From: Cohnella herbarum
GTDB taxonomy: Bacteria > Bacillota > Bacilli > Paenibacillales > Paenibacillaceae
DNA length: 64,000 nucleotides
Direction: 5' to 3'
NCBI RefSeq assembly: GCF_012849095.1
Contig: NZ_CP051680.1
Span: 310,001 to 374,000 of the forward strand
Shown here: positions 32,216 to 61,395 of the stretch, piece after piece
Position numbering within the stretch: the first letter of the stretch is position 1
Layout of the letters: each line of letters begins with the position of its first letter
Notes under the pieces: generated by a model
The model's database searches: none
What the model saw: the letters and a program-made list of their open reading frames with translations, nothing else
What the model was told of the DNA's origin: nothing
Made by a program: the position numbers and the translations under genes

Positions 32216-33940
32216 ATGGAAAAACGAAGACTTCCCGATACGCTAACGTTAGAGGATAGAGCTGGAATTGCGATGAATGCCATCGTGGGTATGGCCGACC
32301 AGGATTACAACCATATTCCTTTTTTTGCGGCGAATCTGATGTCAGACCCTGCTAACCTTACGCACGGAGATTGGGATTACGGCTCTTCTCATGGACGCAT
32401 GGTTGATGCGTTGGTACTGGCTCGTCATATGTCGGGCGAGACGTTGGGCACGGATATTGAAGAGATCTACCGTTCCAACCTGTTGTCATTTTTCCAAGAG
32501 GACGGACTCAGCTATCGTCAAACAAATCCAAACCACAAATGGGAGCCCAATGCTAATTTTATCGATCAGCGAGCAGTCATTTTATCGCTTACGTCTTGGT
32601 ACATGGACACGGGAGACTTGAAGGTAAAAGAAGCAGCGGACAAGCACGTTGCGGCTCTTAAACACGTGGCTATTAAGGAACGGGATGTCTGGTACTATCC
32701 TGCATCGGAATACAAGGAAGGCGGCTGGCCTTCCTCCAACGCGATTCTGCTTCGTCTTGCACCGGATCCTGCTGCTTTCTGCGGACGTTTAGTTATGCCG
32801 TTGCTTAAATACCATGAGTTGACAGGGAATCAGGATGCATTCGAGTTATGCCAATTTTTCACTCAACTGATCGTACATCGGAGCGGGGTGTTCAATCCTG
32901 ACGGCAGCTTTAACGATTCGTTGGCTTATCGTAGCGGACATTTCCATACCCGGCTCGGCACGCTCGACGCGCTAGCCCGATTCGGGGTATTTACCGGGGA
33001 TGCGGCTTTAATCGGCTATGTTGAAAAAAGTTTTGCTTGGGCAACGACTCAATGCACGGCTTTCGGCTGGACACCGGGTGACCTGAAAGAACAGGCCTAT
33101 GAACATGAAACCTGCTCGCTGGTCGACCTGATCGCGACCGGAATCACGCTAGCGAAAAGCGGTTATACGAAGTACTGGGGGACAGTGGAAAGGTATATTC
33201 GCAATCATCTCGTCGAATCGCAGCTGTTGGACATGGATTGGGTGAAGGAGACGGACGATCTCTCGAAGGAAATTACAGGTAAGATTACTTTCCAAAATAT
33301 CGGCCAACGCACGCGGGGCGCATTCGCGGGTTATTCTGCGCCAAATGACTTCTGCTGTGATGTGAATTACGGCCGCGGGCATACGAATGATTTGCAGATT
33401 TGCTGCCTCGGCTCGGGAACTCGCGGTCTTTATATGGGCTGGAGCAATACGATTGCGGAGAAGGATGGCGCGATTAGCGTTAACTTCTTACTGAATCGTG
33501 GTTCTGTTTGGCTCGATGTGGACAGCTATCTGCCGCATGAGGGCAAGCTGGTACTGCATATTCATCGTGACCTTCCTAGATTGCAGGTTCGCATTCCGGA
33601 ATGGGCCGGTTATGCGAAGGTTAGCTATACCCGTGAATTGGACGGCGAGATAAGATCGGGCAGAGGAAACGAACCAAGCACCTGGGTGAACGAGCACTTC
33701 CTTCTACTTGGTGCGGCGAAAGCCGGAGAATTAATTACAATCGAATTCCCATTGTCGCACCGTACGACGACTGAAACAGCAATCGGCCAAGTGTTCGAGA
33801 CGACGTGGCGCGGGGACGATGTCGTTGCTATTTCTCCGTCGGGGACGAAGCATCCGTTTTATTCCGGTCGTCAAGTGTTCGATAAGGCGCCAATGCGCGA
33901 GGGTTCATTACGTCGTAACGAGAATGAGTTAGTTTGGTAA
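32216..33940 (+). CDS. GH127/GH146-like glycoside hydrolase, putative (first gene of apionate-type operon)
   Basis: The 574-residue protein has the alpha/alpha barrel followed by beta-sandwich pattern of GH127-type enzymes, including VRIPEWAGY in the sandwich. Near residue 300 the string HETCSLVDL resembles the Glu-Thr-Cys of GH127 (Glu338 and Cys340 in the model enzyme), and two CC pairs, FCC near 379 and ICC near 396, could supply further zinc-coordinating cysteines. No signal peptide is seen, so it should act in the cytoplasm on small oligosaccharides. GH127 members are beta-L-arabinofuranosidases and, in RG-II degraders, also aceric-acid-releasing enzymes. Its place before a RuBisCO-like protein/kinase pair makes an apiose- or aceric-acid-releasing role thinkable. 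RBS GAGGAGA precedes the ATG. Confidence 0.6.
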   Translation: MEKRRLPDTLTLEDRAGIAMNAIVGMADQDYNHIPFFAANLMSDPANLTHGDWDYGSSHGRMVDALVLARHMSGETLGTDIEEIYRSNLLSFFQEDGLSYRQTNPNHKWEPNANFIDQRAVILSLTSWYMDTGDLKVKEAADKHVAALKHVAIKERDVWYYPASEYKEGGWPSSNAILLRLAPDPAAFCGRLVMPLLKYHELTGNQDAFELCQFFTQLIVHRSGVFNPDGSFNDSLAYRSGHFHTRLGTLDALARFGVFTGDAALIGYVEKSFAWATTQCTAFGWTPGDLKEQAYEHETCSLVDLIATGITLAKSGYTKYWGTVERYIRNHLVESQLLDMDWVKETDDLSKEITGKITFQNIGQRTRGAFAGYSAPNDFCCDVNYGRGHTNDLQICCLGSGTRGLYMGWSNTIAEKDGAISVNFLLNRGSVWLDVDSYLPHEGKLVLHIHRDLPRLQVRIPEWAGYAKVSYTRELDGEIRSGRGNEPSTWVNEHFLLLGAAKAGELITIEFPLSHRTTTETAIGQVFETTWRGDDVVAISPSGTKHPFYSGRQVFDKAPMREGSLRRNENELVW

Positions 33941-33975: not shown

Positions 33976-34662
33976 ATGAGAACGGTTGTAGCCATCTATA
34001 CCGGTCAAGGATTGGCGGACCCGCTAAAAGCGGTATTCAAAGAAAAACTGCCGAATGTTCGGCTTGTTAATATTATCGATGACAGTCTGATCGGAGATGT
34101 TGTTCAAGCCGGTCATGTTCCGCCGGGAGTCGCAAGAAGACTTGTCCAGTACTATCATAATGGCGAAGAGCTTGGAGCGGACGTCATCTTGAACACCTGT
34201 TCATCGGTAGGAGAGGTTGTGGACAGCGCAAGCGCAATGATCGGGATCCCCATTGTCAAGATTGACCAGGCGATGGCAGCTAAGGCTGCCGCTGAATACT
34301 CAACGATTGCCGTCCTTGCAACATTGCCTTCTACGCTTGAGCCGACTATGCGCTTAATCTCGAAGGAGGCTTCCTTGCTAGGTAAAGAAATCAAATTAAT
34401 TCAAGGGCTGGCGGCCGGAGCATTTGATTCGCTAGTTGGAGGCAAGCCTGAAGAGCACGATCGGATATTGTTAGAAACGGCTAAGCGAATATCGGAGAAA
34501 GCGGATGTTCTCGTACTGGCTCAGGGCTCGATGGCGCGTATGGCGCATTCGTTGCATGAGGCGACGGGGAAGCCGGTGCTGTCTAGTCCGCACCTTGGCG
34601 TAGAGCAAGTGAAAGCGATATTGGAGCAGCTTGATCGCGAGCAAGCAGGAATCAACAGCTAG
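33976..34662 (+). CDS. Asp/Glu racemase superfamily protein retaining only one of the two cysteines
   Basis: The 228-residue protein starts VVAIYTGQGLADPL and has NTCSSVGEVVDSA around residue 75, the site of the first catalytic cysteine of aspartate/glutamate/hydantoin racemases. The second site, normally LGCTHY, is LAQGSMARM here, so the second cysteine is replaced. A two-base racemase is therefore unlikely; a one-cysteine decarboxylase or isomerase related to AMDase or maleate isomerase is more likely. It sits between the GH127-like gene and the RuBisCO-like gene with GGAGG before its ATG. Its role in the pathway is unknown. Confidence 0.8.
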   Translation: MRTVVAIYTGQGLADPLKAVFKEKLPNVRLVNIIDDSLIGDVVQAGHVPPGVARRLVQYYHNGEELGADVILNTCSSVGEVVDSASAMIGIPIVKIDQAMAAKAAAEYSTIAVLATLPSTLEPTMRLISKEASLLGKEIKLIQGLAAGAFDSLVGGKPEEHDRILLETAKRISEKADVLVLAQGSMARMAHSLHEATGKPVLSSPHLGVEQVKAILEQLDREQAGINS

Positions 34663-34677
34663 AATGGAGGTCGCCCA

Positions 34678-35937
34678 ATGAACCAAGATCGAGTAAATGC
34701 CACGTACCTCGTGGAAACTCCCTATTCCCTGCAGGTTGCGGCTGAAGTGATTGCGGGCGAGCAATCTACCGGAACGTTCACTGCGGTTCCGGGTGAGACA
34801 GATGCGCTTAAGATGAAGTTCGGTGCCCGAATTGAGAAGATTGCGGAGCTTGGAACAGCAGGGAAACCTACGCTTCCAGGCTACAATATACCTGCTGGGC
34901 ATGATGGGCTTTACCGCAGCGGGTTAGTGACTTTGTCGTTCCCCTTACACAATTTCGGACCATCCATACCTAATCTGATGTCTTCCATAGCAGGTAATCT
35001 GTTTGAATTGCAGCAATTGTCCGGTTTGCGATTGGTGGATCTGGAGCTTCCAATCGCCTTCGCCGATAGGTATCCCGGACCTAAATTCGGGATAGAAGGC
35101 ACGCGCAAGCTGACAAACGTGTACGATCGTCCGATTCTAGGTACAATCGTTAAGCCCAGTATTGGATTGGCACCGGAGCAACTGCAGAAGATGATTATTG
35201 AAGTGTCTTCAGCGGGCTTGGATTTCATTAAGGATGACGAGTTGAACGCCAATCCGCCCTATGCTCCTCTTGAGATGAAAGTGAAGGCAGTTATGGAGGC
35301 CGTTGAGAAAGCAGCGGACGCGACGGGTAAGAGGATCATGTATGCATTCAATATAACCGGCGACATTGAAGAGATGAAGCGCAATCACGAGCTTGTTGTC
35401 AAGGCTGGCGGTAATTGCGTAATGGTCAGCATCATGAGCGTCGGGCTGGCGGGTTTGGCTCATTTGAACGAGTATAGCGAAGTGCCGATTCACGGACACC
35501 GCAATCAATGGGGGATGATGACGCGTTGCCCTAATCTCGGCTTCGAGTTTGCGGCTTATCAGAAGCTATGCCGGCTCGCGGGTGCCGATCATCTTCATGT
35601 GAACGGGTTGAACAGCAAGTTTTACGAAAGTAATGAATCCGTCGTTCGTTCAATTCAGGCATGCATTTCACCGATGTACGGCGGATATGCATCGATGCCG
35701 GTCGTCTCCTCAGGACAGTGGGCGGGGACAGCGATCGACACTTATGCAGCCACGAAATCCGTAGATGTCATGCATCTGGCCGGCGGAGGTATCCTGGCTC
35801 ATCCAGACGGGGCGGCAGCCGGATTCGAGAGCATGAAGCTCGGCTGGGAAGCAGCTGTGAATGGCATTCAGCTCAATGAATATGCGAAGAAGCATCCATC
35901 GCTGAAGAGGGCGATCGAGAAATATGGAAAGGGCTGA
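34678..35937 (+). CDS. RuBisCO-like protein, probable 3-oxo-isoapionate-4-phosphate acting enzyme
   Basis: The 419-residue protein has the form III/IV RuBisCO large-subunit layout. Catalytic positions visible are GTIVKPS (Lys159), DFIKDDE (Lys185, the carbamylated lysine, with Asp187 and Glu188 as metal ligands), HGHRNQWG (around 272-275), LNSKF (Lys314), VVSSGQW and GGGILAHPDG. All key residues for metal and enolisation are present, unlike many degenerate form IV proteins. A DUF1537 kinase gene follows after three bases. This RuBisCO-like/kinase pair is the combination described for 3-oxo-isoapionate kinase plus decarboxylase or transcarboxylase (OiaK with OiaC/OiaX) in D-apiose catabolism. 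Which of those two reactions it performs cannot be read from sequence. Confidence 0.88.
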   Translation: MNQDRVNATYLVETPYSLQVAAEVIAGEQSTGTFTAVPGETDALKMKFGARIEKIAELGTAGKPTLPGYNIPAGHDGLYRSGLVTLSFPLHNFGPSIPNLMSSIAGNLFELQQLSGLRLVDLELPIAFADRYPGPKFGIEGTRKLTNVYDRPILGTIVKPSIGLAPEQLQKMIIEVSSAGLDFIKDDELNANPPYAPLEMKVKAVMEAVEKAADATGKRIMYAFNITGDIEEMKRNHELVVKAGGNCVMVSIMSVGLAGLAHLNEYSEVPIHGHRNQWGMMTRCPNLGFEFAAYQKLCRLAGADHLHVNGLNSKFYESNESVVRSIQACISPMYGGYASMPVVSSGQWAGTAIDTYAATKSVDVMHLAGGGILAHPDGAAAGFESMKLGWEAAVNGIQLNEYAKKHPSLKRAIEKYGKG

Positions 35938-35940
35938 GCC

Positions 35941-37377
35941 GTGATGGCCATACGTTCACAGGAAGAAGCTGATGCAAATCCAGTAGCCATAAGCCTGTCC
36001 AGTGGTCGCTTTCGTAAGCTGCTCTGTTATTACGGAGATGATTTTACTGGCTCGACAGATGTATTGGAATCGCTATTCCGTGCCGGCATCAAGTCGGCTC
36101 TATTCTTAGATCCGCCGAACGATGAGCAACTGCGGGAAGAGCGTTACGCTTCCTTGGATGCCTTCGGCGTTGCTGGTATCGGACGTTCCCTAACGCCTGA
36201 AGAAGCGGAGAAGGAGTTACTTCCGATCTTCCAGACGCTGAAGAGAGCGGGGGCTGCTATCATACACTATAAAATTTGCTCCACCTTCGATTCGTCGCCG
36301 GGAATAGGCAACATCGGTGTTGCGGCTCGGTTGGGGCGCGAAACGTTCGGCGGTCGGTATATTCCTTTGCTAGTCGGAGTGCCCTATCTGGGCAGATATA
36401 CGTTGTTTGGCAATCATTTTGCCAAGTCGGGGACGGAGGTGCACAGGCTGGATCGACATCCGACAATGTCCAGGCATCCGATTACACCTATGAAAGAGGC
36501 GGATTTGCGTAAGCATCTCACCGAGCAGAGCGATGACCGGATTTCCTTATTTGACATTATGGCTTTGGAAGGCAAGCTGCCTGATGTTCGTATGCGGCTG
36601 GAGCGACAGGTTGTGGCGGAGCAGCCGGATATGCTGCTGTTCGACGTACTCGATGAAGAGCGGTTGGAGACAATCGGGCACCTGCTGTGGGAGGAGGCTT
36701 TACGCAGTGAAGGGTCATTCGTGATCGGATCCTCCGGGATTGAATATGCGCTCGGAGCTTGCTGGAAATCCTTACAGCTATCGGAACTGCAGCCGGACGT
36801 GCCGACAAGCGTCTCTCCTGTCGATCGATTGCTGGTCGTGTCAGGAAGCTGCTCTCCCGTAACGGAGGCGCAGATCCATGCAGCGGTAGCATCGGGATTT
36901 GTCGGAATTCGCGTACCGGTTCATACGCTTATCGATCCTGAACTTGCGGCACAGACAAGTCGGCAGCTACTGGAAGAAGCGAAGGAGCATCTTGAGAGGG
37001 GAAGAAGCGTCCTCTTATATTCGGCTAGCGGACCAAGCGACAGTAGTATTGAGCAGCTTCGCAAGGCGCTGGTTGCAGGCGGATTCCGAGCTGAAGATAG
37101 CAGTAAATTGCTAGGTGGGATTCTGGGCTCGTTGGCCCGTTCACTCCTTATTGAGACCGGGCTGACCCGTTTAGTTATCGCAGGTGGAGACACATCCGGT
37201 TATGTGACCCGTGAGCTTGGTATCCGCTCGCTGGAGTGCACGGCCGTAGTAACTCCCGGCGCACCGTTATGCCGGGCAGCATCGGAGCATGCTCGGATTG
37301 ATGGCCTCGAGCTTGTGCTCAAAGGCGGACAGGTTGGCGGAATTGATTTCTTTAACCAAGTGAAGAACGGTAATTAA
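35941..37377 (+). CDS. Four-carbon acid sugar kinase family protein (DUF1537), probable 3-oxo-isoapionate kinase
   Basis: The 478-residue protein has YYGDDFTGSTDVLESLFRAG at the start (sugar-acid binding domain) and GGDTSGYVTRELGI with TPGAPLCR at the end (nucleotide domain). This is the PdxA2-associated DUF1537 kinase family, whose members phosphorylate threonate, erythronate, tetronates and 3-oxo-isoapionate. Its direct neighbour is a RuBisCO-like protein rather than PdxA or an aldolase, which favours the isoapionate branch. The GTG start (ATG at 35944 is an alternative) follows GGAAAGGGC. It is the last gene before a terminator. Confidence 0.88.
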   Translation: MMAIRSQEEADANPVAISLSSGRFRKLLCYYGDDFTGSTDVLESLFRAGIKSALFLDPPNDEQLREERYASLDAFGVAGIGRSLTPEEAEKELLPIFQTLKRAGAAIIHYKICSTFDSSPGIGNIGVAARLGRETFGGRYIPLLVGVPYLGRYTLFGNHFAKSGTEVHRLDRHPTMSRHPITPMKEADLRKHLTEQSDDRISLFDIMALEGKLPDVRMRLERQVVAEQPDMLLFDVLDEERLETIGHLLWEEALRSEGSFVIGSSGIEYALGACWKSLQLSELQPDVPTSVSPVDRLLVVSGSCSPVTEAQIHAAVASGFVGIRVPVHTLIDPELAAQTSRQLLEEAKEHLERGRSVLLYSASGPSDSSIEQLRKALVAGGFRAEDSSKLLGGILGSLARSLLIETGLTRLVIAGGDTSGYVTRELGIRSLECTAVVTPGAPLCRAASEHARIDGLELVLKGGQVGGIDFFNQVKNGN

Positions 37378-37485: not shown

Positions 37486-38031
37486 CTACGACTGACCAAT
37501 TAACATGCAATACTTATTTTCAAGTGCTTGAAGATACTTTGCAGGGTTTCTTCTAAATCGTCGACGTTTGGTGGTTTCCTCTAATCGACGAAACCATCTT
37601 TGCCGCTCGTTTTGGAATTCGGCATAGCTTACACTTTGAAGTCGTTCAATGAGATTGCTTTGGCGGAGTGCATCATCGACGAACACAACAAACTCTCCGG
37701 AGCGGACGATATATTCGTTCCAGCTTCGGAGTCCTGTCATCCTACGGTGTCGTGTCTTCGTTTTACGAAAAAATCTTTCGTGGTCATTATTCGTACGATG
37801 AAGATAAGGGTAGTCGTAACAGTTAAACAAACCCTTCCAAAACCCTTTTGTGTAACTCTTTAAATTAGATAACATCGGATGGTCGGATTCTTTTGAGTAA
37901 GTTACATCTAGCCATTGAAGTAAGCAATGCATATGGAACCGTACGGAATCGCTGCTTTGGTCAACTGTGGGATTGAGGACGGTGGCGACATGCTGTAGAG
38001 CGTATGACCAGCGCTTTACTTCTTCATACAA
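37486..38031 (-). pseudogene. Transposase, C-terminal portion in the other frame
   Basis: This frame, open from about 38091 on the minus strand, gives YEEVKRWSYALQHVATVLNP at its first ATG region and contains YLHRTNNDHERFFRKTKTRHRR, with a likely third catalytic Glu (NDHERFFRKTK). It ends in TAG whose three bases are the outermost bases of the terminal inverted repeat. It has no ribosome binding site of its own and needs the upstream portion. Confidence 0.8.
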
Positions 38032-38062
38032 TGAGCGATACTCTTCAAGTTTACTGAAAATT

Positions 38063-39079
38063 CTAAATACGTTTTGGAGTAGAGATGGCTCTTTTTTTAC
38101 TCAGGCAGCTTAGCAGCGATGCCTGTATGACTTCGGATGTTTCAAACACTCGAATGCCTGGCAAATCTAAAGGAGGGTTCCCATCTTCAAGTAGTACCGA
38201 GCGCACAGCGGCTAGATAATCCTTCGCAATTTCTGAATCCTCGGAGTTGTCTTTAACCAGCTTCCGTTCAATAGCTCGGATTCCTCGGAGACTTTTCTTG
38301 ATGCCGGTTTTTAATTTCCGATCCAGTTCTACAATGGGCTTGGCAATATCCTTCAAGTAATGATACTGGCAGTACTGATAGGGCACTTCAGGAAGCAGGG
38401 ATTCCATGGCAAGCCGAATAGACTGTTGTCCGTCTGTCACGATTCCGATGATTGGAAATCCAAGATCGATAACGGGTTGAATAAGACTTTTTAGTTCTTC
38501 AGTAGAACTGCTTTTGACGTTCTTGGCGACAAGAATCGTTCCGCTGAATACTTCTCGAATAACATACAGGGTTTCATTACCTTTCTCTGGCTGCACACCA
38601 TCCATCGAGATCATAATTCCTTTACGTAGATCGACAACCTGCTTAAGCTGTTCTTTTACAAATTCCGTTACACTTGAACGCAATAGCGTCAGATAACGCT
38701 CATAAAGTCTTTGGGCATTTCGCTCTGATGTGGCCACACCCCGTCCAGTTAGTTCTTCCGTGATCTCAGCTATGGTCATATGATGCTTGAAACGTAGCTG
38801 ACCAACTAAAGCAAGCACGTCAAAACCATATGAAGTGTGCTTCATAGCCAGTGAATCTGCTTCCACTGATTTGTAGTAGGTTTTTGGAAATGAACAGCTT
38901 GGATTTGCGCATACATAAGCCATGCTCCAAGCTTGAATGACACCATGTAAGGTGGATATATTTTTCTTCCAAGCTGTGTGACTTCGTTTCAACTTTCCAC
39001 CACATTGAACACAACAAGTAACTTCTGGTTTAAAGTAAATCTTTTGTTCCGGAATGATTCGGTTCTTAGGCAATGGCAT
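38063..39079 (-). CDS. Transposase, N-terminal portion (frame interrupted at an A7 run)
   Basis: The protein starts with a zinc-finger-like VTCCVQCGGKLKRSH and YVCANPSCSFP, then RFKHHMTIAEITEELTGRGV and the DDE-type sequences GIMISMDGV and IVTDGQQS, which probably hold two catalytic Asp residues. It runs into out-of-frame sequence (RAISTPKRI) right after a run of seven A (38098-38092). With six A the frame would read KKEPSLLQNVFRIFSKLEEY and join the downstream part. The full product would be about 530 residues. Confidence 0.85.
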   Translation of the reverse strand: MPLPKNRIIPEQKIYFKPEVTCCVQCGGKLKRSHTAWKKNISTLHGVIQAWSMAYVCANPSCSFPKTYYKSVEADSLAMKHTSYGFDVLALVGQLRFKHHMTIAEITEELTGRGVATSERNAQRLYERYLTLLRSSVTEFVKEQLKQVVDLRKGIMISMDGVQPEKGNETLYVIREVFSGTILVAKNVKSSSTEELKSLIQPVIDLGFPIIGIVTDGQQSIRLAMESLLPEVPYQYCQYHYLKDIAKPIVELDRKLKTGIKKSLRGIRAIERKLVKDNSEDSEIAKDYLAAVRSVLLEDGNPPLDLPGIRVFETSEVIQASLLSCLSKKRAISTPKRI

Positions 39080-39357: not shown

Positions 39358-40284
39358 ATGTGGAGCGACATAAAGAGACAAAAGTATGCCCATATGTTCG
39401 TACTGACCGGAATGCTGATTGTATTCATCTTCCAGTACCTGCCGATGTTCGGCATTCTAATGGCCTTTAAACAGTATTCGATTACTTCCGGCATTAAAGG
39501 TATTTTTACGAGTCAGTGGGTAGGTCTTAAGTATTTCGTAGAATTTTTCAATGCATACAATTTCGAGCAAATGGTGAAAAACACGATTGGAATCAGCTTA
39601 CTGAAGCTGGTATTCACCTTTCCGGTGCCAATCTTGCTGGCGATCATGCTAAACGAAGTCAGGAGTCGTTTTTTCAAGCGATTCGTGCAAACGGTCAGCT
39701 ACTTTCCGCACTTTATCTCCTGGATCGTCGTATCCGGATTGCTCGTAATTTTTTTCTCGACGAACTCCGGCATTGTTAATGACGCGCTGTTATCGCTGGG
39801 CATCATTGATGAACCGATCGCTCTATTAAGCGACCCCGACTACTTCTGGGGCTTGGCCGTAGGCAGTGCGATGTGGAAGGAAGCAGGCTGGTGGACGATC
39901 ATTTTTCTGGCGGCGATTAGCGGGTTGGATCCTTCGCAATATGAGGCGGCCGAAATCGACGGAGCCGGACGGATGAAAAGAATCTGGCACATCACATTGC
40001 CTGGCATTAGGGGAACGATTGTCGTCGTGCTTATATTGGCAGTCGGAAGCTTGCTTGGCGGCGGTTTAGTCGGTTCCAATTTCGAGCAATCCTATTTACT
40101 AGGAAACGTCATGAATAATGAAAAGTCCGAAATTCTACAAACCTATGCGTTCAAGATGGGGCTAGCGCAAGGAAGATATGCATTCGCAACCGCAATCGAC
40201 CTGCTGCAATCCCTTATCGCGATCGTTCTAGTATTCGGCAGTAACTATATTTCTAAGAAGACGACGAAGAGCGGTTTATTTTAA
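39358..40284 (+). CDS. ABC transporter permease, LplB-type (CUT1)
   Basis: A permease of 308 residues with six helices, starting MWSDIKRQKYAHMFVLTGML. The cytoplasmic EAA loop reads YEAAEIDGAGRMKRIWHITL, the contact to the ATPase. LplB/YtcP-type permeases in Paenibacillaceae import oligosaccharides from plant polymers. It is followed after 22 bases by the partner permease and then the binding lipoprotein. No ATPase gene is nearby, as usual for importers that share an MsmX-like ATPase. Confidence 0.94.
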   Translation: MWSDIKRQKYAHMFVLTGMLIVFIFQYLPMFGILMAFKQYSITSGIKGIFTSQWVGLKYFVEFFNAYNFEQMVKNTIGISLLKLVFTFPVPILLAIMLNEVRSRFFKRFVQTVSYFPHFISWIVVSGLLVIFFSTNSGIVNDALLSLGIIDEPIALLSDPDYFWGLAVGSAMWKEAGWWTIIFLAAISGLDPSQYEAAEIDGAGRMKRIWHITLPGIRGTIVVVLILAVGSLLGGGLVGSNFEQSYLLGNVMNNEKSEILQTYAFKMGLAQGRYAFATAIDLLQSLIAIVLVFGSNYISKKTTKSGLF

Positions 40285-40306
40285 CGAAGTCAGTGAGGTG
40301 AGAAGT

Positions 40307-41188
40307 ATGCATCGGAGAACAAATGAAGACCGCATTTTTGATTTTATTAATATCCTCGTATTAAGTTTGATTGCCATTGTCACGACGTATCCTTTCTACT
40401 ATATGGTTGTCATTTCATTCAATAACGGATTGGATTCTACATTGGGAGGAATCTATTTTTGGCCAAGAAGCTTTACTTTAGATAACTACACCGAATTTTT
40501 GAACGACCCCAAATGGATGCAATCGTTCTTCGTTTCGATAGCGCGAACGATAGTCGGAGCTTTCATTACGATATGGTTTACTTGCTTGGCAGCTTATGGT
40601 TTGGCCTACAAAAATCTTAAATTCCAAAAATTGTACTATAGCTTTTTTATCATTGGGATGTATACTGCAGGGGGTCTTATCCCGTACTACGTCGTCCTTC
40701 GCGGTCTGGGATTGCTTAATACTTTCTGGGTGTACGTTATACCGGGTGCGATCAATATCTTTTTCCTGATCGTTGCCGTTTCTTTCTTTAAAGAAATTCC
40801 TGCCGAGATGGAAGAGTCGGCGAAAATGGATGGCGCTTCCGATCTTAAAATTTATTATAAGCTGATCCTACCGGTATCCAAGCCGTTGTTAGCTGCAATG
40901 GGACTGTTCGTGGGGGTAGGGCAATGGAATTCTTGGCTGGACTCGGCGTATTTCGTCAACAACAATAGCCTGCGGACATTAACCTATCGGATGATGGAAA
41001 TCATTAACCAGGGAATGTCTCCATTGGATGCGGAAAGCGCGGAACGAGCGGCTGCCGTAACCGGGGTCACGACCTTCTCGATGCAGATTACGGCAATGGT
41101 TATCGCAGTGCTTCCTATCTTATGCGTTTATCCGTTCCTGCAAAAGTATTTCGTTAAAGGAATTATGCTGGGTTCCGTTAAAGGGTAG
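40307..41188 (+). CDS. ABC transporter permease, YtcP-type (CUT1)
   Basis: The second importer permease, 293 residues, with about six helices and the EAA loop EESAKMDGASDLKIYYKLIL. The ATG at 40307 is preferred over a GTG three codons upstream because GAGGTGAG then sits at proper spacing. The C-terminus FLQKYFVKGIMLGSVKG is the standard YtcP ending. It pairs with the LplB-type permease upstream. Confidence 0.94.
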   Translation: MHRRTNEDRIFDFINILVLSLIAIVTTYPFYYMVVISFNNGLDSTLGGIYFWPRSFTLDNYTEFLNDPKWMQSFFVSIARTIVGAFITIWFTCLAAYGLAYKNLKFQKLYYSFFIIGMYTAGGLIPYYVVLRGLGLLNTFWVYVIPGAINIFFLIVAVSFFKEIPAEMEESAKMDGASDLKIYYKLILPVSKPLLAAMGLFVGVGQWNSWLDSAYFVNNNSLRTLTYRMMEIINQGMSPLDAESAERAAAVTGVTTFSMQITAMVIAVLPILCVYPFLQKYFVKGIMLGSVKG

Positions 41189-44115: not shown

Positions 44116-46815
44116 CTAATCTCCTGCAACGTTAAAGCTGTATTGGCCGGAGGCTAATTGCAGTACCGTCCAACCCGGCTTATAGCCTTCGAGCAAGATT
44201 CCGACAGCAGCGTCGATGGGATTTCCATTTTCGGTTATTTTCAGCGTATTAGAACTTGGGATATGGGCAGTCGCGGTGCTGTTTACAGGTACGGTTAGGT
44301 CTAGCTTTAAGCTTCCGTCGTCGCTACGTTTCCATTCGACGCTCATTTCACCTAAGTCCGCTCGAACTTTTGCCTTGACGAAAACAAGACTTTCTTCGAT
44401 ATGGGGCTTAATCGCATAATGAATGGCTTCCGTAACGGGATCATGCGAATAATCGATGCCAGCCAAGTCTCGATAGAACCATTCTTCCAAATGACCCAGC
44501 ATAAAGTGGTTTTGAGACTTGCCGACCGTTGGTCCGTCCCACGCTTCCGTTAACGAGGTTGCGCCATGTTGAATCTGATAGCCGTAGCTTGGATGTTCCG
44601 TTTGACTGGACATCTTCAGGATCAGATCATTGCAATTGCGCCGTGACAACGCGAGCAGAACAAAGCGATAGGCAACATCGCCAGCGGACGTATGATAGCC
44701 GCGTGCCGTAATATCATTTACCAGATGGCTCAGTACGTCCGACTCGTATTCCTCATCGACTAAACCAAGCGCGAGCGACATCGCTTGCGCTGCCTGGCTA
44801 CCGGATCCATATTGCTTGGTTATTGGATCGAAGAACGCATCCTCGTATGCGATTTTAATTCGTGAACGGAGGGAAGCAAATTGCGCTTCATCGTCACTAT
44901 GACCCAATAGGGCTGCAATTTGCCGTAGTACGTCAACGATATGATAGAACATGGCGGTTTCGGGAAGCGCAATCGGAGTGTTCTGGGTAAAGCCCGGACC
45001 TTGCTCGCCAACGTCATACCAATCTCCAAGTCCATCCTGAATAATAAGCTCTTCCGAATGATTCACCAGGAATTCGATGTATTTTTTCATATTTGGATAG
45101 TGCTCGTTCATGACTTTTCGATTTCCGTATTTGGTATACAGGATCCAAGCATTCAGAATATAAGTTGCACCCCAGGGAACGGAATGCCGGAAAATATCCC
45201 ACGGCTTCTCGAAGATCACGAATTCGGGAGCGGTTGTCGGAACCATCCCGTTCGGAAGCTGGGCGTCACGTATGTCGTCCATAATTTTAGTGAGCAGGAC
45301 TTCGATGGAGTAATTGTAGATCATGGAAGGACCCATGAGATGTACCTCTTCCAGCCAACCAAACTTCTCGCGATGAGGACAGTCGGTTAAGACGCTCTTC
45401 ATATTGCTGAGGATAGCCCAATTTATTATCTCGTGAGTTCGATTCAGCAACGAGTCCGAGCATTCGAATTGACCGCTAACTTCGATGTCTGGGTAGATCA
45501 TTTGACCTTCCAAGTCGAATAGAATTGGAAGCTCGCTAGCCGTGTCGCTATTCTGCGCCGCCTCGCTTGCAGGAACGGCGCCTTCAACCTGAACGTAACG
45601 AAATCCGGAATAAGAGAAGCGGGGCTTCCAGCTTTCGATGCTTTCGCCGCACAAAGTATAATGCCACTCATACGGAGAACCCGTCCATTTTTGGTTTACG
45701 GTACCATCGTCGTTCAGCAGCTCTGCAGGAGTGAGCTTCACGCGTGAATTCGATCGTCCTTGGACCGTAATCCTGACCCATCCGGAGAAGTTTTGTCCAA
45801 GGTCGTACACGTATTTGTGCGATTCGATACGCGTAATCTTGAGCGGTCGAAAGGTTTGCATGACCTTTAACGGTGATGACTTGTCCCATTTAAGTTGACC
45901 AAGTGGGGCTAGCGTTTCTTCTGCCTTCTGCCAGGAAGACAGGGCAGAGAAAGCAGGCTGATCCCATCCGGGCTGCCAGAGCCGGGCATCGTAATCTTCC
46001 CCTCCGTATACAGTAGAGAAGGTAATCGGACCTTTCGCTGCAGCCCACTCCGCGTTGCTGCCGATCGTCTCGACCGTGCCGTCGATATATTCGATTTCGA
46101 TTTGTACGATACATCGGGGTCTTCCGAACGACTTCTCGTACTTCGCGTAACGTCCGCTGCTTGTCACATGATAGAAGCCGTTGCCTAGCATGATACCGAC
46201 AGCGTGTTGTTCTGCCGTTAACAGCTTAGTTACGTCATATGCCTTGTAGAGGCACGTGCGGTCATAATGGGTCCAACCAGGTTCGAGTACATGATCTTCG
46301 ACCTTGTAGCCATTGATGCGTAGTTCATATTGGCCTAATCCGCAAATGTATGCTCGTGCACGATGGATTGATTTCTGCGTGATAAATTCATGCCTGAAGA
46401 GAGGCATCGACAAGTCGTTATCCATTCCGTCTTCGTCTGTTCCATGGCAGATCCATTTGGCTGACCAATCGTCCGCGTGGAGCAACCCCATTTCCCACCA
46501 GCTTGTTTGGCTCTCCATCATGCGATCTTGGTTATCCCAAATTTGAACCTTCCAATAATAACGATTACGGGATAACAGCGGTATACCCTCGTATTCAATG
46601 CCGGATTGACGTCGGCTATGGACGATTCCGCTATCCCATACGTCCCATTGCTCTAACTCTGTCGCATGCTCGTTCGTGGAGACGAGAACGCGATATGCGC
46701 TTTGATTTTCCATTCTTTCTCCAGCGCTGGCGAGACTCCAACTCAATGTTGGCTGATGGCTGTCAAGGCCTAATGGATGGATCTGGGCATTCACATACAG
46801 GTTTCCGACGTACAT
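44116..46815 (-). CDS. Alpha-L-rhamnosidase, GH78
   Basis: The start at 46815 gives MYVGNLYVNAQIHPLGLDSH, the usual GH78 N-terminus, and AAAGGAT lies upstream; a longer in-frame start has no ribosome binding site. Domains are two N-terminal beta domains, an alpha/alpha6 barrel with the signature DCPHREKFGWLEEVH near residue 480 (general acid), and a C-terminal beta domain. The length of about 899 residues is normal. It is cytoplasmic (no signal) and removes terminal rhamnose from imported oligosaccharides. It is the only gene of the sugar locus on the minus strand and is divergent from the next giant enzyme. Confidence 0.93.
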   Translation of the reverse strand: MYVGNLYVNAQIHPLGLDSHQPTLSWSLASAGERMENQSAYRVLVSTNEHATELEQWDVWDSGIVHSRRQSGIEYEGIPLLSRNRYYWKVQIWDNQDRMMESQTSWWEMGLLHADDWSAKWICHGTDEDGMDNDLSMPLFRHEFITQKSIHRARAYICGLGQYELRINGYKVEDHVLEPGWTHYDRTCLYKAYDVTKLLTAEQHAVGIMLGNGFYHVTSSGRYAKYEKSFGRPRCIVQIEIEYIDGTVETIGSNAEWAAAKGPITFSTVYGGEDYDARLWQPGWDQPAFSALSSWQKAEETLAPLGQLKWDKSSPLKVMQTFRPLKITRIESHKYVYDLGQNFSGWVRITVQGRSNSRVKLTPAELLNDDGTVNQKWTGSPYEWHYTLCGESIESWKPRFSYSGFRYVQVEGAVPASEAAQNSDTASELPILFDLEGQMIYPDIEVSGQFECSDSLLNRTHEIINWAILSNMKSVLTDCPHREKFGWLEEVHLMGPSMIYNYSIEVLLTKIMDDIRDAQLPNGMVPTTAPEFVIFEKPWDIFRHSVPWGATYILNAWILYTKYGNRKVMNEHYPNMKKYIEFLVNHSEELIIQDGLGDWYDVGEQGPGFTQNTPIALPETAMFYHIVDVLRQIAALLGHSDDEAQFASLRSRIKIAYEDAFFDPITKQYGSGSQAAQAMSLALGLVDEEYESDVLSHLVNDITARGYHTSAGDVAYRFVLLALSRRNCNDLILKMSSQTEHPSYGYQIQHGATSLTEAWDGPTVGKSQNHFMLGHLEEWFYRDLAGIDYSHDPVTEAIHYAIKPHIEESLVFVKAKVRADLGEMSVEWKRSDDGSLKLDLTVPVNSTATAHIPSSNTLKITENGNPIDAAVGILLEGYKPGWTVLQLASGQYSFNVAGD

Positions 46816-46981
46816 AGGTTCAACATCCTTTCGAGTGGAGCGCACATGATTATCCATCCTAAGCTTAGCATGTTGCCTTCCGGATTTAGATTCCGAAAAT
46901 TAAGGCTTTTTGTTAAAAATGATCGCTATGTTCATCCTGCGGAACGAACTATACTTGAACGAAAGATTGGAGGCGATCCTT

Positions 46982-53706: not shown

Positions 53707-53752
53707 ACAGACGTTTTTCATGTGAAAATAAGTGGATAAGGATGTGATGCCA

Positions 53753-55798
53753 ATGTTTAATAAACCTATCCCAAAAATGCTTTATGGCGGGGATTACAAT
53801 CCAGAGCAATGGCCCGAGGAAATATGGCAGGAGGATATGCGGCTCTTTAAGCTTGCCGGGGTCGATATTGCGACGATAAACGTGTTCTCATGGGCGTTGA
53901 ACCAGCCTGACGAGAAGACATATGAATTCGGCTGGCTTGATCAAGTGATGGACATGCTTCATGCCAATGGTGTATACGCTTGCATGGGAACGGGGACGGC
54001 TGCTCATCCGGCTTGGATGGCGACCAAGTATCCCGACGTACTGACTGTCGACTTTGAAGGTCGAAAGAGAAAATACGGTCGACGGCATAATTCATGCGCC
54101 AACAGTCCGACGTTCAGAACTTACTCCCGGCAAATTGCATATCGACTTGCCGAACGATATAAAGACCATCCGGCCTTGCTGTTATGGCACGTGAATAACG
54201 AATACGGTTCGCGCTGTTATTGCGAGAATTGCGAGAAGGAATTTCGGAAATGGCTGCAGCGGAAGTATGGTAGCTTAGATGCTCTTAACGAGGCCTGGTA
54301 CACTCGATTCTGGGGACACTCGTTCTATGACTGGAACGAGATTGTCCTGCCGAACGCGCTGAGTGAGCATCTGAGCTCAAGCAATCAGGATGCGACGGCC
54401 TTTCAAGGGATTTCCTTGGACTATGCCCGCTTTAATTCGGATAGCATTCTGGATAGCTATAAGATTGAACGGGATGCGATCAAGAGCGTTGACCCGAATG
54501 CGGTTGTGACTACGAATTTCCAAGGGAACGGAACGTATAAGCCGCTGGATTATTTCAAATGGGCTAAGGAGCTCGATGTGATCGCGCTCGATAGCTATCC
54601 GCCAGACGATGCGCCACCCAGTTATTCGTCAATGCGGCATGATCTGATGCGAGGGCTTAAGGGAGGAGCGCCGTTCATGCTGATGGAATCTTGTCCGAGC
54701 CAGCTGAACTGGAAGCCGCAAAATCCGCTTAAACGGCCGGGGGTATCGAGGCTATGGAGCTATCAATCGATCTCTCGCGGAGCGGATAGCATCATGTATT
54801 TTCAAATGAGACGATGTGCGGGAGCTTTCGAAAAATTCCATGGGGCAATGATTGATCATGCCGGCCATGAGAATACTCGCGTATTCCGGGAGTGCGCCTT
54901 AGTCGGACAGGAGCTTGGACAGCTGGGCGATCGAATTGTCGGCGCGCGTACGCCGGCAAAGGCAGCTATCGTCTTCGATTGGGACAATTGGTGGGCGATC
55001 GAATATTCGAGCGGTCTAACCGATCAGCTAAAGTATTTGCAGGAGATTCAGAAATACTATGATGCTTTTCATGGTCGTAATATAACAGTCGATTTCGTCA
55101 GTACGGAATGCGATCTCAGCGGATATGACGTCCTCGTAGCTCCAGTGCTGTATATGGTGAAGGAAGGCTATGCCGAGAAGCTGGAACAGTTCGTTTCCGC
55201 CGGGGGAACATTTTTGACGACTACCTATAGCGGTATCGTAGACGAGAACGACAAAATCCCGCTCGGCGGTTACCCGGGCAAGCTGCGGAAGCTGTTAGGA
55301 ATATGGGTTGAAGAGATTGATGCGCTTCTGCCTTTGCAGCGCAATCTGATGCGCGTAAGCAATCCGGTCGGAGAGCTTACAGGGTCGTATGAATGCAGCA
55401 TTTTGTGTGATGTGCTGCATTCCGAAGGTGCCGAGGTGATAGCGGAGTTTGGTCGTGAATTTTATCAAGGAATGCCAGCGTTAACCCGTCATTCCTTCGG
55501 CAACGGCGAAGCGTGGTATGTCGCCACTAGCCCGGAGCCGGTTTTCTTGGATAAGCTTGTGCTGCATCTGTGCGCGAATAAAGGGATTACCCCCTTGTTG
55601 GATACCCCATCGAATGTCGAAGCGACGTTCAGAGAAAAGGAAGAGAACCGTTATTTGTTCGTGCTTAATCATAATGATGATGAGAAATTGGTGAACATTG
55701 GCCCGCTACCGTATATGGATCTGTTGCGCGGTGGCGATATAAGCGGCGAAGTTAAGCTTGAACCCAAAGGCGTGTTACTGTTGCAAATAGGAGTGTGA
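53753..55798 (+). CDS. Beta-galactosidase, GH42
   Basis: A 681-residue protein with the GH42 start [20 protein letters not shown], acid/base HVNNEYG near residue 149, a zinc cysteine cluster [10 protein letters not shown], and the nucleophile [11 protein letters not shown] near 311; the trimerisation and C-terminal domains follow. The start at 53753 is chosen because AAGGATG lies at good spacing; earlier in-frame starts overlap it. GH42 enzymes release beta-D-galactose (or alpha-L-arabinopyranose) from small oligosaccharides in the cytoplasm. The GH95 gene overlaps or directly abuts its end. Confidence 0.94.
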
Positions 55799-55806
55799 GC
55801 GTATCG

Positions 55807-58203
55807 ATGAGCATAAGGAGCATAAGTAAAAACAACGCGATGCTGCTCTGGTATCAAGATCCAGCCGAGGAGTGGGTGGAAGCACTGCCGCTCGGGAACG
55901 GCCGACTGGGTGGCATGGTCTATGGCGGCATTAAACGAGAGCGCATTTCGTTAAACGAGGACACCCTGTGGACGGGCTCGCCAAGGGAAGCCGACAATAT
56001 GGAAGCGGTTAAGCATTTGGATGAATCGCGTAAGTTGATTTTTGCTGGGCAATACCGGGAAGCTCAGACGGTTATCGAGAATCATATGCTCGGTCCTTGG
56101 TCTGAAGCTTATCAAGCACTGGGTGACCTGGAGCTGGAGATGGAGCATGGCTCCAACGTACAGTCCTATCGCCGCGAGTTGGATCTTCGCAGCGGAATTA
56201 GCCGCACTGAATATACGCATGGAGATACGACTTATGTTCGTGAAGCTTTCATTTCAGCCGTCGATCAAGTCATGGTTATTCGGATTACTGCGGATCAGCC
56301 CAAAAAAATAAACCTGCATGCTTCATTGTGCAGTGCGTTGAATTATACGACAGGAAAAATAGGTGTGGATCGCATTTTCATGGCTGGTGCAGCCCCTAGT
56401 CGTATGGATCCAATGGGTAGCCCTGCCGAAGAAACGGTATTCTTCGAGGAGAACAAAGGGGTACGCTTTCAAGTTCAACTTCAGGCGATAGCGGAGGAAG
56501 GGCATGTCGAGACGCATGGCGCACGTTTGCTCGTCAGGTCCGCGAAGGCGGTAACGCTTCTGCTGAGTGCAGCTACCAGCTTTAACGGCTATGACAAGGA
56601 TCCCGTAACCGAGGGGAAAAACCCGGCAGAGCTGTGCGAAGGCTCGATAGCCGAGGCTTCTCGTTATAGCTATGCACAATTGAGGGAGCGGCACGTCGCG
56701 GATTTTCAACCGTACTTCGATCGAGTGGAGTTGGAGTTGGGCGGGGAGAGCCGAACCGGGCTGCCTACGGATGAACGTATTATTGCTGTGCGGGAAGGCG
56801 GGGAGGACTCGCAGCTCGCAGCGTTATTTTTCCAATACGGCCGTTATTTGATGATCAGCAGCTCGCGGCCCGGCACGCAGGCCACCAATCTTCAGGGCAT
56901 CTGGAACAACATGACGAAGCCGCCTTGGTCATGCAATTATACGACGAATATCAATACGGAAATGAACTACTGGCCAGCCGAAAGCTGTAACCTCGCAGAG
57001 TTCCATTATCCATTATTCGATATGCTTAACGATCTTCGGACGACAGGCGGTAAAATGGCAGACGTCTATTACGGCGCTCGGGGCTGGACCGCGCATCATG
57101 GCGTTGATCTATGGCGGACTGCCACACCGCAGGGAGGACCGTCTAAAGGACCGGCGACTTGGGCTTACTGGCCGATGACAGGGCCTTGGATGTGCCAGCA
57201 CTTATGGGAGCATTATGCCTACAATGGCGATGCTGATTTCTTGAGGGATGTCGCCTATCCGATCATGAAGGAAGCGGCTATGTTCTGCCTCGATTATCTG
57301 GTCGAGGATGAGAACGGGAATCTCGTATCGTCTCCTTCGACATCGCCGGAGAATACGTTCATCGCGCCGGATGGATCGCATGTCGCAGTTGGGATGAGCT
57401 CTACGATGGATATTGCGCTCATGCGCGAGCTATTTGCTAACTGCATGGAAAGCTATAGGATATTGAACGAAACCGATGGCTTCAGGGATACGCTGAGCCA
57501 AGCCTACGATCGTTTATTGCCATTTCAGATTGGCCGGCATGGGCAGCTTCAGGAATGGTTCCGGGACTTTGAAGAAGCGGAGCCGGGCCATCGACATACG
57601 GCTCATCTATACGGACTGCATCCGGGCAACCAAATTACGGTTCGCGGAACGCCTGAGCTGGCGCAAGCCGTACGAAAGACTTTAGATCGCCGTCGAGTGT
57701 ATGAGGGCACGGATACGATCGGTTGGTGCTTTGCTTGGAATATTAACATTTACGCACGGCTGGAAGATCCGGACAACGCCTACGGATATTTACGAAAACT
57801 GCTCGGCAATCCGTTTCCTAATCTCTTTAACGCGCATCGGCATCCGAAAATTACGTTTTACCCTTTTTCGATCGAAGCGAACTTTGCGGCTACCGCGGGT
57901 ATTGCCGAGCTGCTTGTACAAAGCCATGCAGGCGAATTACATTTGCTGCCCGCATTGCCTTCAGCTTGGAGCAGCGGCAGCGTGAAAGGACTTCGCGCCC
58001 GCGGCGGATATGAAATTAGCATGGAATGGGAGCAGGGGAGATTGCATCATGCGATTATTCAAGCATCCTTGAACGGGAATTGTAGATTGCGAGTATCCGA
58101 GACAGTCGCAATTGAAGGAGTATCGAGTGAGATTGCGGCTGATGGTGCTATAGAGTTCACGACGCAAGTAGGGCAACGTTATGAGGTTATTACGTTAAAA
58201 TAA
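55807..58203 (+). CDS. GH95 glycoside hydrolase (alpha-L-fucosidase / alpha-L-galactosidase)
   Basis: The 798-residue protein starts near [20 protein letters not shown] and [16 protein letters not shown], the GH95 N-terminal domain, and continues with the barrel region [20 protein letters not shown] (inverting mechanism) and [16 protein letters not shown]. No signal peptide, so an intracellular enzyme. In RG-II degradation a GH95 enzyme acts as alpha-L-galactosidase; elsewhere the family is alpha-1,2-L-fucosidase. The ATG is 13 bases after AGGAG; an alternative GTG overlaps the GH42 stop at 55795. Confidence 0.93.

Positions 58204-61395
<3,192 letters not shown>

What the first reader, a model, noticed from the sequence alone, without database searches (positions are those of the whole stretch)
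33976..37377. RuBisCO-like protein plus DUF1537 kinase operon, apionate (apiose) type, with an extra one-cysteine racemase homologue
Seen: an RLP with KDDE carbamylation motif and other active-site residues intact, directly followed by a DUF1537 kinase. Known: OiaK plus OiaC/OiaX process 3-oxo-isoapionate in D-apiose catabolism. Inference: this operon carries out that route. New here is the Asp/Glu racemase homologue and GH127-like enzyme in the same operon. The apionate-forming genes (apiose dehydrogenase, lactonase, apionate oxidoisomerase) are not evident in the window, so the upstream chemistry may differ.
Basis: partly seen in the sequence, partly recalled or inferred. Interest (0 to 1): 0.8.

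Follow-up and report, generated by a model that had tools for sequence, protein, structure and literature searches.

The report
Predicted breakdown operon for aceric acid
A soil Cohnella carries a four-gene operon (a GH127-like sugar-releasing enzyme, a one-cysteine racemase relative, a RuBisCO-like protein and a kinase) that most likely digests aceric acid, a rare branched sugar acid of the plant polysaccharide RG-II, by a route for which no published description was found.

Summary
The four genes are real: GH127-like hydrolase (32216-33940), one-cysteine racemase homologue RAC (33976-34662), RuBisCO-like protein RLP (34678-35937) and DUF1537 kinase (35941-37377). RLP and kinase resemble OiaX and OiaK but miss their NCBIfam cut-offs; so do RLPs standing beside ApnO elsewhere, so that alone does not exclude apiose. 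Genome evidence does speak against the apionate route: no ApnO match in this genome, none in 32 of 40 family genomes with the GH127-like gene, and an apiose-type module of another kind beside the second operon copy. Among 394 family genomes the GH127-like gene (40) and RAC (40) coincide in 39. In 33 of the 40 the RLP is present; the other 7 all have GH127-RAC-kinase-BKACE, so RLP and a beta-keto-acid cleavage enzyme seem interchangeable. GH127-RLP-kinase pairing recurs in actinobacteria and on an alphaproteobacterial plasmid among pectin-type hydrolases. Best reading (0.47): aceric acid from RG-II, released by the hydrolase, is isomerised by RAC to a beta-keto acid homologous to 3-oxo-isoapionate, phosphorylated, and decarboxylated or split to 3-phosphoglycerate and lactate. 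Substrate and activities are inferred; nothing was assayed.

The parts
32216..33940 (+). GH127-like glycoside hydrolase, 574 aa, no signal peptide seen by eye; proposed aceric acid hydrolase
   Evidence: No Pfam or NCBIfam hit at E 0.001; model pLDDT 91; the 21 best Foldseek hits are all GH127/GH146, BT_1003 (5mqo) among them; E298-x-C300 and C396-C397 in 81 of 81 rows
33976..34662 (+). RAC: one-cysteine Asp/Glu racemase homologue, 228 aa; proposed aldose-ketose (keto) isomerase
   Evidence: PF01177 70 bits; Cys75 and Gln183 invariant in 12 of 12; Gln183 stands where allantoin racemase 5lfd has Cys
34678..35937 (+). RuBisCO-like protein, 419 aa; proposed to decarboxylate, or transcarboxylate and hydrolyse, a phosphorylated beta-keto acid
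   Evidence: PF00016 and PF02788; OiaX 462 of 700 bits; tree
35941..37377 (+). DUF1537 kinase, 478 aa (GTG start)
   Evidence: PF07005 and PF17042; OiaK 466 of 700 bits
39358..42873 (+). ABC importer: two permeases (39358-40284, 40298-41188) and solute-binding protein (41299-42873); probable oligosaccharide uptake
   Evidence: PF00528 on the first permease; PF13416 and PF01547 just under cut-off on the binding protein; second permease by eye; same order after the kinase in L045 and, without a call for the second permease, in L042
42980..43981 (+). GH137-type protein, like the N-terminal part of the beta-D-glucuronidase/beta-L-arabinofuranosidase model
   Evidence: NF049877, model positions 31-343, 169 bits, under its whole-protein cut-off of 1800
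44116..46857 (-). GH78-type alpha-L-rhamnosidase
   Evidence: PF17389, PF08531, PF05592
46910..50860 (+). GH106-like alpha-L-rhamnosidase
   Evidence: PF17132 34 bits against 29, over residues 46-129 only
53732..61395 (+). GH42 (53732-55798), GH95 (55795-58203) and GH2 (58264-61395) glycosidases
   Evidence: PF02449, PF22124, PF02836

Best explanation
The operon is a redox-free catabolic cassette for aceric acid (3-C-carboxy-5-deoxy-L-xylose, a branched sugar acid of RG-II side chain B). Imported RG-II oligosaccharide is trimmed by the neighbouring glycosidases, and the GH127-like enzyme releases aceric acid. RAC, working with one catalytic cysteine, isomerises the C1 aldehyde to a C2 ketone, giving HOOC-C(OH)(CHOH-CH3)-CO-CH2OH, which is 3-oxo-isoapionate with one extra methyl. 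The DUF1537 kinase phosphorylates the terminal CH2OH. The RLP then decarboxylates the beta-keto acid to a 5-deoxypentulose 1-phosphate (an aldolase elsewhere giving DHAP and acetaldehyde) or, like the known transcarboxylase/hydrolase RLP, moves the carboxylate and hydrolyses to 3-phosphoglycerate and lactate. Shown: gene order, families, kept residues, co-occurrence, RLP/BKACE alternation, pectin-type surroundings. Inferred: the substrate, every reaction and the order of steps. The structures of aceric acid and 3-oxo-isoapionate and the place of aceric acid in chain B are recalled.
For: (1) GH127-like and RAC are each in 40 of 394 family genomes and together in 39. (2) 33 of the 40 GH127-like genomes have the class-A RLP; the other 7 all have GH127-RAC-kinase-BKACE, and none of 80 named loci has RLP and BKACE together. 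DUF849/BKACE are beta-keto acid cleavage enzymes (PMC10971088, passages), so the shared intermediate is probably a beta-keto acid, with GH127 and RAC upstream of it. (3) BT1003, a GH127, is reported as aceric acid hydrolase (PMC10850190, passages), and the GH127-like model has the GH127/GH146 fold. (4) Surroundings: GH78, GH106-like, GH42, GH95, GH2 and a GH137-type gene in the window; in 80 loci GH78 in 54, GH2 in 31, apiosidase-like in 14 and 2 by two queries. (5) GH127 with RLP and kinase recurs in Kribbella and Streptomyces and Croceibacterium, whose RLPs lie in other clades. (6) No dehydrogenase in the window's cassette, as fits a sugar that already bears a carboxylate. (7) An apiose-type module beside copy 2: split transketolase 48 and 38% to aptA and aptB and FGGY kinase 41% to aplK of E. 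coli SE15 (apiose growth in PMC13001218, passages). (8) In Deinococcus taeanensis an RAC homologue stands between an NAD(P) oxidoreductase and a DUF1537 kinase, as expected of a keto-isomerase acting before the kinase. (9) One in-frame RAC-RLP fusion, L064 (Cohnella rhizosphaerae by contig place).
Against: No activity is known. The GH127-like protein reaches no Pfam model, and its fold does not single out BT_1003: it is 21st of the 21 GH127/146 hits by E-value, though with the lowest rmsd, 6.4 A. Croceibacterium's GH127 is nearer to 5opj than to BT_1003. Failing the OiaX cut-off does not exclude apiose, because RLPs beside ApnO fail it too, and ApnO-linked RLPs are scattered over the tree. Only 3 columns separate class A from B and C, none catalytic. 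RAC also stands beside apiosidase-like genes in L218, L219 and L191, so it might act on apiose. RAC with RLP and kinase occurs in haloarchaea and Nonomuraea away from evident RG-II genes. Kribbella loci lack RAC, and of 4 Kribbella genomes 2 have only 34-35% matches and 2 none. Redox genes do stand next to RLP or RAC in other lineages: an alcohol dehydrogenase in Streptomyces, Gfo/Idh in class D. 8 of 40 GH127-like genomes have ApnO. The FGGY kinase beside copy 2 reaches NCBI's glycerol kinase cut-off (538 and, in L043, 613 of 498), while E. coli aplK just misses it at 490, so its name is unsure. GH139, which removes the methyl-fucose of chain B (PMC12282258, section read; GH95 is there said to act on L-fucose only), was not searched. 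Counts are not corrected for kinship.
Confidence: 0.47

Rival explanations
1. One reading: D-apiose/D-apionate route. Kinase and RLP process 3-oxo-isoapionate; dehydrogenase, lactonase and oxidoisomerase lie elsewhere or are replaced, and RAC and the GH127-like enzyme serve the same or another sugar.
For: Best NCBIfam hits are OiaX and OiaK; apiose joins both long RG-II chains to the backbone (PMC12282258, section read); RLPs beside ApnO also miss the OiaX cut-off; RAC lies beside apiosidase-like genes in L218, L219 and L191; four apiosidase-like genes exist in the own genome.
Against: ApnO not found in this genome nor in 32 of 40 GH127-like genomes, by a query that found it in 26 of 394; an apiose-type module of another kind beside copy 2; RLP keeps company with RAC and GH127-like, whereas class C loci, with ApnO, have neither; no dehydrogenase in the cassette.
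Confidence: 0.2
2. The cassette serves another sugar acid released by the GH127-like enzyme from pectin or a plant glycoside; RAC is a keto-isomerase and kinase plus RLP (or BKACE) act on its beta-keto product.
For: RAC-RLP-kinase also occurs where RG-II genes are not evident; the GH127-like fold does not choose between arabinose and aceric acid.
Against: Among the RG-II sugars (list recalled) aceric acid is the one branched acid whose ketose is a homologue of 3-oxo-isoapionate; pectin-type glycosidases keep appearing next to the cassette.
Confidence: 0.23
3. RAC acts after the RLP, for instance as epimerase of the decarboxylated sugar phosphate, and the aldose-ketose step is done by another isomerase.
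For: One RAC-RLP fusion; Kribbella cassettes work without a nearby RAC; isomerase-like gene beside copy 2.
Against: RAC stays when the RLP is replaced by BKACE in 7 of 7 genomes; in Deinococcus RAC stands with oxidoreductase, kinase and aldolase and no RLP within the 16.7 kb shown; a racemase normally needs two bases and RAC has one cysteine.
Confidence: 0.1

Closest known systems
OiaK with OiaX or the transcarboxylase/hydrolase RLP in D-apionate catabolism (Carter et al. 2018, recalled; one passage in PMC6302742)
   Same: DUF1537 kinase next to an RLP with kept active-site residues, presumably acting on a phosphorylated 2-hydroxy-3-oxo acid
   Different: Under both equivalog cut-offs, own RLP branch, no ApnO in the genome, no dehydrogenase in the cassette; RAC and GH127-like gene instead
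GH127 BT1003, aceric acid hydrolase of Bacteroides thetaiotaomicron (PMC10850190, passages; structure 5mqo)
   Same: GH127/GH146 fold, E-x-C and CC residues
   Different: 14% identity in the fold match; no PF07944 hit; no signal peptide seen; activity unknown
2-oxo-tetronate/3-oxo-tetronate isomerase step of threonate catabolism (OtnI, recalled)
   Same: RAC would sit at the same place, before a DUF1537 kinase
   Different: RAC is of the Asp/Glu racemase superfamily, OtnI is not (recalled)
Class C loci of Paenibacillaceae: RLP-kinase-ApnO-Gfo/Idh-apiosidase-like
   Same: Same RLP superfamily and kinase family
   Different: Other RLP branches, ApnO and apiosidase-like genes, no RAC, no GH127-like gene

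Membership tests
OiaX (3-oxo-isoapionate-4-phosphate decarboxylase) | NCBIfam NF042437 at or above 700 bits | tested here: not met
   462.3 bits; positive controls L235 and L236 reach 783 and 771
OiaX (3-oxo-isoapionate-4-phosphate decarboxylase) | groups with RLPs that reach that cut-off | tested here: not met
   separate branch in a 55-row tree
OiaX (3-oxo-isoapionate-4-phosphate decarboxylase) | decarboxylation of 3-oxo-isoapionate-4-phosphate | not testable with these tools
   needs an assay
Transcarboxylase/hydrolase RLP (OiaT, name recalled) | groups with a characterised member | tested here: inconclusive
   no characterised sequence was at hand; RLPs beside ApnO in Phyllobacterium and Roseibium lie in another branch
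OiaK (3-oxo-isoapionate kinase) | NCBIfam NF042436 at or above 700 bits | tested here: not met
   465.8 bits
MtnW (DK-MTP-1-P enolase) | TIGR03332 and PRK09549 cut-offs | tested here: not met
   166 of 513.6 and 205 of 409 bits; own MtnW as control 533 and 601
RuBisCO superfamily | PF00016 and PF02788, carbamylation Lys and metal ligands | tested here: met
   240 and 43.5 bits; K185, D187, E188 kept
DUF1537 kinase | PF07005 and PF17042 | tested here: met
   175 and 126 bits
GH127 | PF07944 profile match | tested here: not met
   no Pfam hit at E 0.001; 2 of 120 listed relatives carry a precomputed PF07944 hit
GH127 | GH127/GH146 fold | tested here: met
GH127 | Glu-x-Cys and Cys-Cys of the zinc site (recalled from HypBA1) | tested here: met
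   E298, C300, C396, C397 in 81 of 81
Asp/Glu racemase (two-base) | PF01177 match | tested here: met
   70 bits, cut-off 31
Asp/Glu racemase (two-base) | two catalytic cysteines | tested here: not met
   one Cys in the protein; Gln at the second place (kept in 14 of 14 readable rows)
RG-II degradation locus | RG-II-diagnostic families such as GH138, GH139 and GH141-GH143 | not tested
   only GH137-type, GH78, GH106, GH42, GH95, GH2 and apiosidase-like genes were looked at

The most novel reading that the evidence does not exclude
A complete, dedicated and redox-free pathway for aceric acid: GH127-like aceric hydrolase, RAC as an aldose-ketose isomerase of the Asp/Glu racemase superfamily working with a single cysteine, a DUF1537 kinase for the aceric ketose, and an RLP that by transcarboxylation and hydrolysis turns the phosphorylated ketose into 3-phosphoglycerate and lactate, with a BKACE as unrelated substitute for the RLP in other Paenibacillus.
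Probability: 0.28. Interest if true: 0.88.

Novelty: new variant of a known kind. Interest (0 to 1): 0.72.

Why it matters
Aceric acid is known from RG-II (recalled; named there in PMC12168206, passages), and my searches of the held library for its use by microbes showed no pathway in their listings (one search found 58 papers with the term and listed 40; none was read whole, and most subscription papers are not held). A named operon makes the question directly testable. If true it would add a substrate to the RuBisCO superfamily, give a one-cysteine branch of the racemase superfamily a role, and show two unrelated enzyme families, RLP and BKACE, at the same place of one operon scaffold.

Tried and rejected
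Apionate route as the sole function: set lower for the reasons given under rivals. MtnW or plain RuBisCO: rejected by family scores and tree. RAC-RLP fusion as a rule: long open frames suggested several, but reading them left one in-frame fusion (L064); L061 and L067 were reading artefacts. Residues that separate class A from B and C: three columns, none catalytic, so no word on substrate. First model of the GH127-like protein (14 rows, pLDDT 56) was poor and its fold match showed only alpha/alpha-barrel and similar folds, no GH127; it was replaced by an 81-row model. Aldolases: 8 class II places in the own genome, too many to choose between the two endings. Apiosidase-like genes: four in the own genome, none in the window, neither for nor against. 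Croceibacterium's GH127 as a link to BT_1003: best solved relative 5opj, 5mqo last of six. The Fisher value for GH127 against RLP-or-BKACE is biased, because BKACE was looked for only in the 7 genomes without the RLP, in 80 named loci and in the own genome (none); I do not lean on it. The class-A limit of 67% identity was set after looking. One row (NonoT) was in a wrong frame and is not counted.

Because of these I lowered the main reading from 0.50 to 0.47, raised the apionate rival from 0.17 to 0.20 and lowered the novel case from 0.30 to 0.28. I also corrected counts for class B and distances in Nonomuraea.

Carter 2018, Ndeh 2017 and Zhang 2016 were not read; what is said of them is recalled or comes from passages in PMC6302742, PMC10850190, PMC13001218 and PMC10971088 and from passages and one section of PMC12282258. 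Of PMC12168206 passages only were seen. The names ApnO, OiaT, OtnI and the apiose isomerase are recalled or taken from those passages; ApnO is my label for genes annotated as phosphogluconate dehydrogenase C-terminal domain protein beside OiaX.
Full report
Observation. The window (G000:C1:310001-374000 of an 8.5 Mb genome; nearest named relative Cohnella sp. WQ 127256, 94% in RAC and 97% in the GH127-like protein) holds four consecutive genes on the + strand: GH127-like 32216-33940, RAC 33976-34662, RLP 34678-35937, DUF1537 kinase 35941-37377. RAC has one cysteine. The RLP keeps the carbamylation Lys, the metal ligands and the catalytic Lys and His. The genome has two further OiaX-like RLPs and one MtnW. 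The second RLP sits in a paralogous copy of the same four genes about 47 kb downstream. The third is in another locus type: RLP-kinase-GntR-alcohol dehydrogenase-TRAP-class II aldolase.

Locus classes. RLP matches at E 1e-60 or better were found in 45 of 394 family genomes; 55 stretches were taken and compared with the own loci. Class A, the window's: GH127-RAC-RLP-kinase, often with an ABC importer, GH2, GH78, GH106 or the GH137-type gene. Class B (ten loci, the own one included): RLP-kinase-GntR-dehydrogenase-TRAP-aldolase. Class C (six loci): RLP-kinase with an ApnO homologue in six of six, a Gfo/Idh gene in five and an apiosidase-like gene in four (Pfam check of two apiosidase-like genes, one Gfo/Idh from L080 and one ApnO homologue). 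The ApnO homologues are 45-51% identical to the gene beside the OiaX of L235 and L236. L080 looks like a class C locus whose ApnO reads in two pieces. Class C fits apiose; class A lacks these genes. The gene picker missed an RLP in L093 that one search shows.

OiaX or not. RLP and kinase hit OiaX and OiaK best but at 462 and 466 bits against cut-offs of 700; two Rhizobium/Marivivens RLPs annotated OiaX reach 783 and 771. In a 55-row tree class A is one branch (support 89/74 with Bacillus solitudinis L143, 99/95 without it), apart from those OiaX, from RLPs beside ApnO in Phyllobacterium and Roseibium and from the own MtnW. This does not exclude an apiose role by itself: the Phyllobacterium and Roseibium RLPs also miss the cut-off (411 and 416 bits), and ApnO-linked RLPs are not one branch. 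The genome evidence is stronger: ApnO was not found in the own genome by a query that found it in 26 of 394 family genomes; of 40 GH127-like genomes 32 lack it and 8 have it. Beside copy 2 stand an isomerase-like gene (weak L-fucose isomerase domain, 26 bits under a cut-off of 29.3), a split transketolase 48 and 38% identical to aptA and aptB and an FGGY kinase 41% identical to aplK of E. coli SE15, a cluster whose apiose use was confirmed by growth (PMC13001218, passages). The FGGY kinase also reaches NCBI's glycerol kinase subfamily cut-off (538 of 498; 613 in L043), which aplK just misses (490), so its naming rests on the neighbours.

What travels with what. In the 394 genomes the GH127-like gene (66% identity or more; seven matches at 32-33% dropped) is in 40, RAC (59% or more; one match at 48% dropped) in 40, both in 39. 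Class-A RLP (67% or more) is in 34, of which 33 have GH127-like. The exception G275 has RAC and kinase beside GH2, GH42, GH95 and the GH137-type gene. The 7 GH127-like genomes without class-A RLP all carry GH127-RAC-DUF1537 kinase-BKACE (L144, L146; L223-L227; Pfam BKACE 222 bits in L144). The GH137-type gene is in 45 genomes, 20 of them among the 40. These counts are not corrected for kinship, and limits were set after looking.

Wider loci. A scan of named genomes with the GH127-like alignment kept 80 of 90 loci found, in Paenibacillus, Cohnella, Bacillus, Nonomuraea, Streptomyces and Kribbella. All four genes: 44 of 80; GH127-like with RLP and kinase but no RAC: 13; with RAC only: 4; alone: 19, some cut by contig ends. 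Of the 13, three are Paenibacillus, and all three have RAC elsewhere in the genome (55-64%), in two of them in an apiosidase-like-RAC-GH42-GH95 cluster (L218, L219). The other ten are Kribbella (9) and Streptomyces (1); of four Kribbella genomes searched two have weak RAC matches and two none. Two loci counted as GH127 alone (L129, L132) have RAC-RLP-kinase just beyond the stretch (L210, L211). On plasmids: Croceibacterium has GH127 (PF07944)-RLP-kinase among galactosidases, fucosidase, GH28 and GH2, and an RAC homologue beside an apiosidase-like gene 33 kb away on the same circle. Rufibacter has RLP-kinase-RAC-bile acid:sodium symporter-type transporter beside pectinesterase, GH28 and polysaccharide lyase. 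Streptomyces NBC_00184 has the GH127-like gene (55%), an alcohol dehydrogenase, RLP, kinase, GH78, GH2, galactosidase and fucosidase. Against a purely RG-II role, Natronosalvus, a haloarchaeon, has RLP-kinase with RAC-SDR nearby, and Nonomuraea thailandensis has RAC-RLP-kinase about 64 kb from its GH127-like gene among CoA-type genes judged by eye; in N. jabiensis RAC and kinase lie about 90 kb away and no RLP was called.

The GH127-like enzyme. It has no Pfam or NCBIfam hit. An 81-row AlphaFold model (pLDDT 91) matches GH127 and GH146 structures first, BT_1003 among them, and the E-x-C and CC residues are in 81 of 81 rows. I call it GH127-like, not GH127, because the family profile is not reached. 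BT1003 is reported as aceric acid hydrolase (PMC10850190, passages), but the fold does not choose between aceric acid and arabinose.

RAC. The profile aligns Cys75 with the first catalytic Cys of aspartate racemase (catalytic role recalled) and puts Gln183 where allantoin racemase has a Cys; both are invariant in 12 of 12 close rows and kept in 14 of 14 readable rows that reach into Bacteroidota, Deinococcota, proteobacteria, actinobacteria and haloarchaea. A racemase of this kind uses two bases, an aldose-ketose isomerase needs one (general enzymology, recalled). RAC stays when the RLP is replaced by BKACE, and in Deinococcus taeanensis it stands between an NAD(P)-dependent oxidoreductase and a DUF1537 kinase followed by an aldolase. 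This points to a step before the kinase that makes a keto acid.

Mechanism proposed. Aceric acid (structure recalled) after C1/C2 isomerisation is HOOC-C(OH)(CHOH-CH3)-CO-CH2OH, the next higher homologue of 3-oxo-isoapionate (structure recalled). Kinase and RLP would then do what OiaK does together with the decarboxylase or the transcarboxylase/hydrolase RLP (two RLPs with these activities are named in PMC6302742, one passage). The second ending gives 3-phosphoglycerate and lactate and needs no aldolase, in line with none in the cassette, but an aldolase elsewhere cannot be excluded (8 class II places). The window's cassette has no dehydrogenase, as expected if the sugar already bears the carboxylate; in other lineages redox genes do stand beside RLP or RAC. 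All of this paragraph is inference.

Confidence. That class A is a functional unit distinct from the apionate route: about 0.75. That its substrate is aceric acid: 0.47. That RAC is the isomerase: about 0.45. Whether the RLP ends in 3-phosphoglycerate and lactate or in CO2 is open, about even.

Noticed in passing
window 37486-39079 (-): Two transposase-like ORFs by eye (181 and 338 aa, no Pfam hit) lie between the kinase and the ABC permease; relatives L042 and L045 have only about 300 bp there, so this looks like an insertion in this strain.
   Followed up: partly
L008:12639 to L009:920 (own genome) and nine other class B loci: RLP-DUF1537 kinase-GntR-alcohol dehydrogenase-TRAP transporter-class II aldolase: an uptake and breakdown unit for an unknown acid, possibly another RLP pathway.
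   Followed up: partly
L134, L210, L211, L215: Class D: Gfo/Idh dehydrogenase, a 666-690 aa abhydrolase and RAC side by side, followed by RLP and kinase in L134, L210 and L211; these RLPs form their own branch next to two class C ones.
   Followed up: partly
L192:7078-11798: Deinococcus taeanensis plasmid: NAD(P) oxidoreductase, RAC homologue, DUF1537 kinase, class II fructose-bisphosphate aldolase and GntR, perhaps a tetronate-like pathway with RAC in place of the known isomerase.
   Followed up: no
L189, L240 (haloarchaeal plasmids): Haloarchaea carry RLP-DUF1537 kinase pairs whose RLP is 56 and 53% identical to the window's, with RAC-SDR or a TRAP transporter nearby.
   Followed up: no
L080 (G009:C8:875948-876749): ApnO homologue reads in two pieces beside a class C type RLP and kinase; may be decay or an assembly error.
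   Followed up: no
window 20894-21355: ORF made of head-to-tail repeats (HPYFSRNLLPEQNSGAQ-like); a similar repeat ORF lies at L007:13098-13463. Looks like non-coding repeats rather than genes.
   Followed up: no
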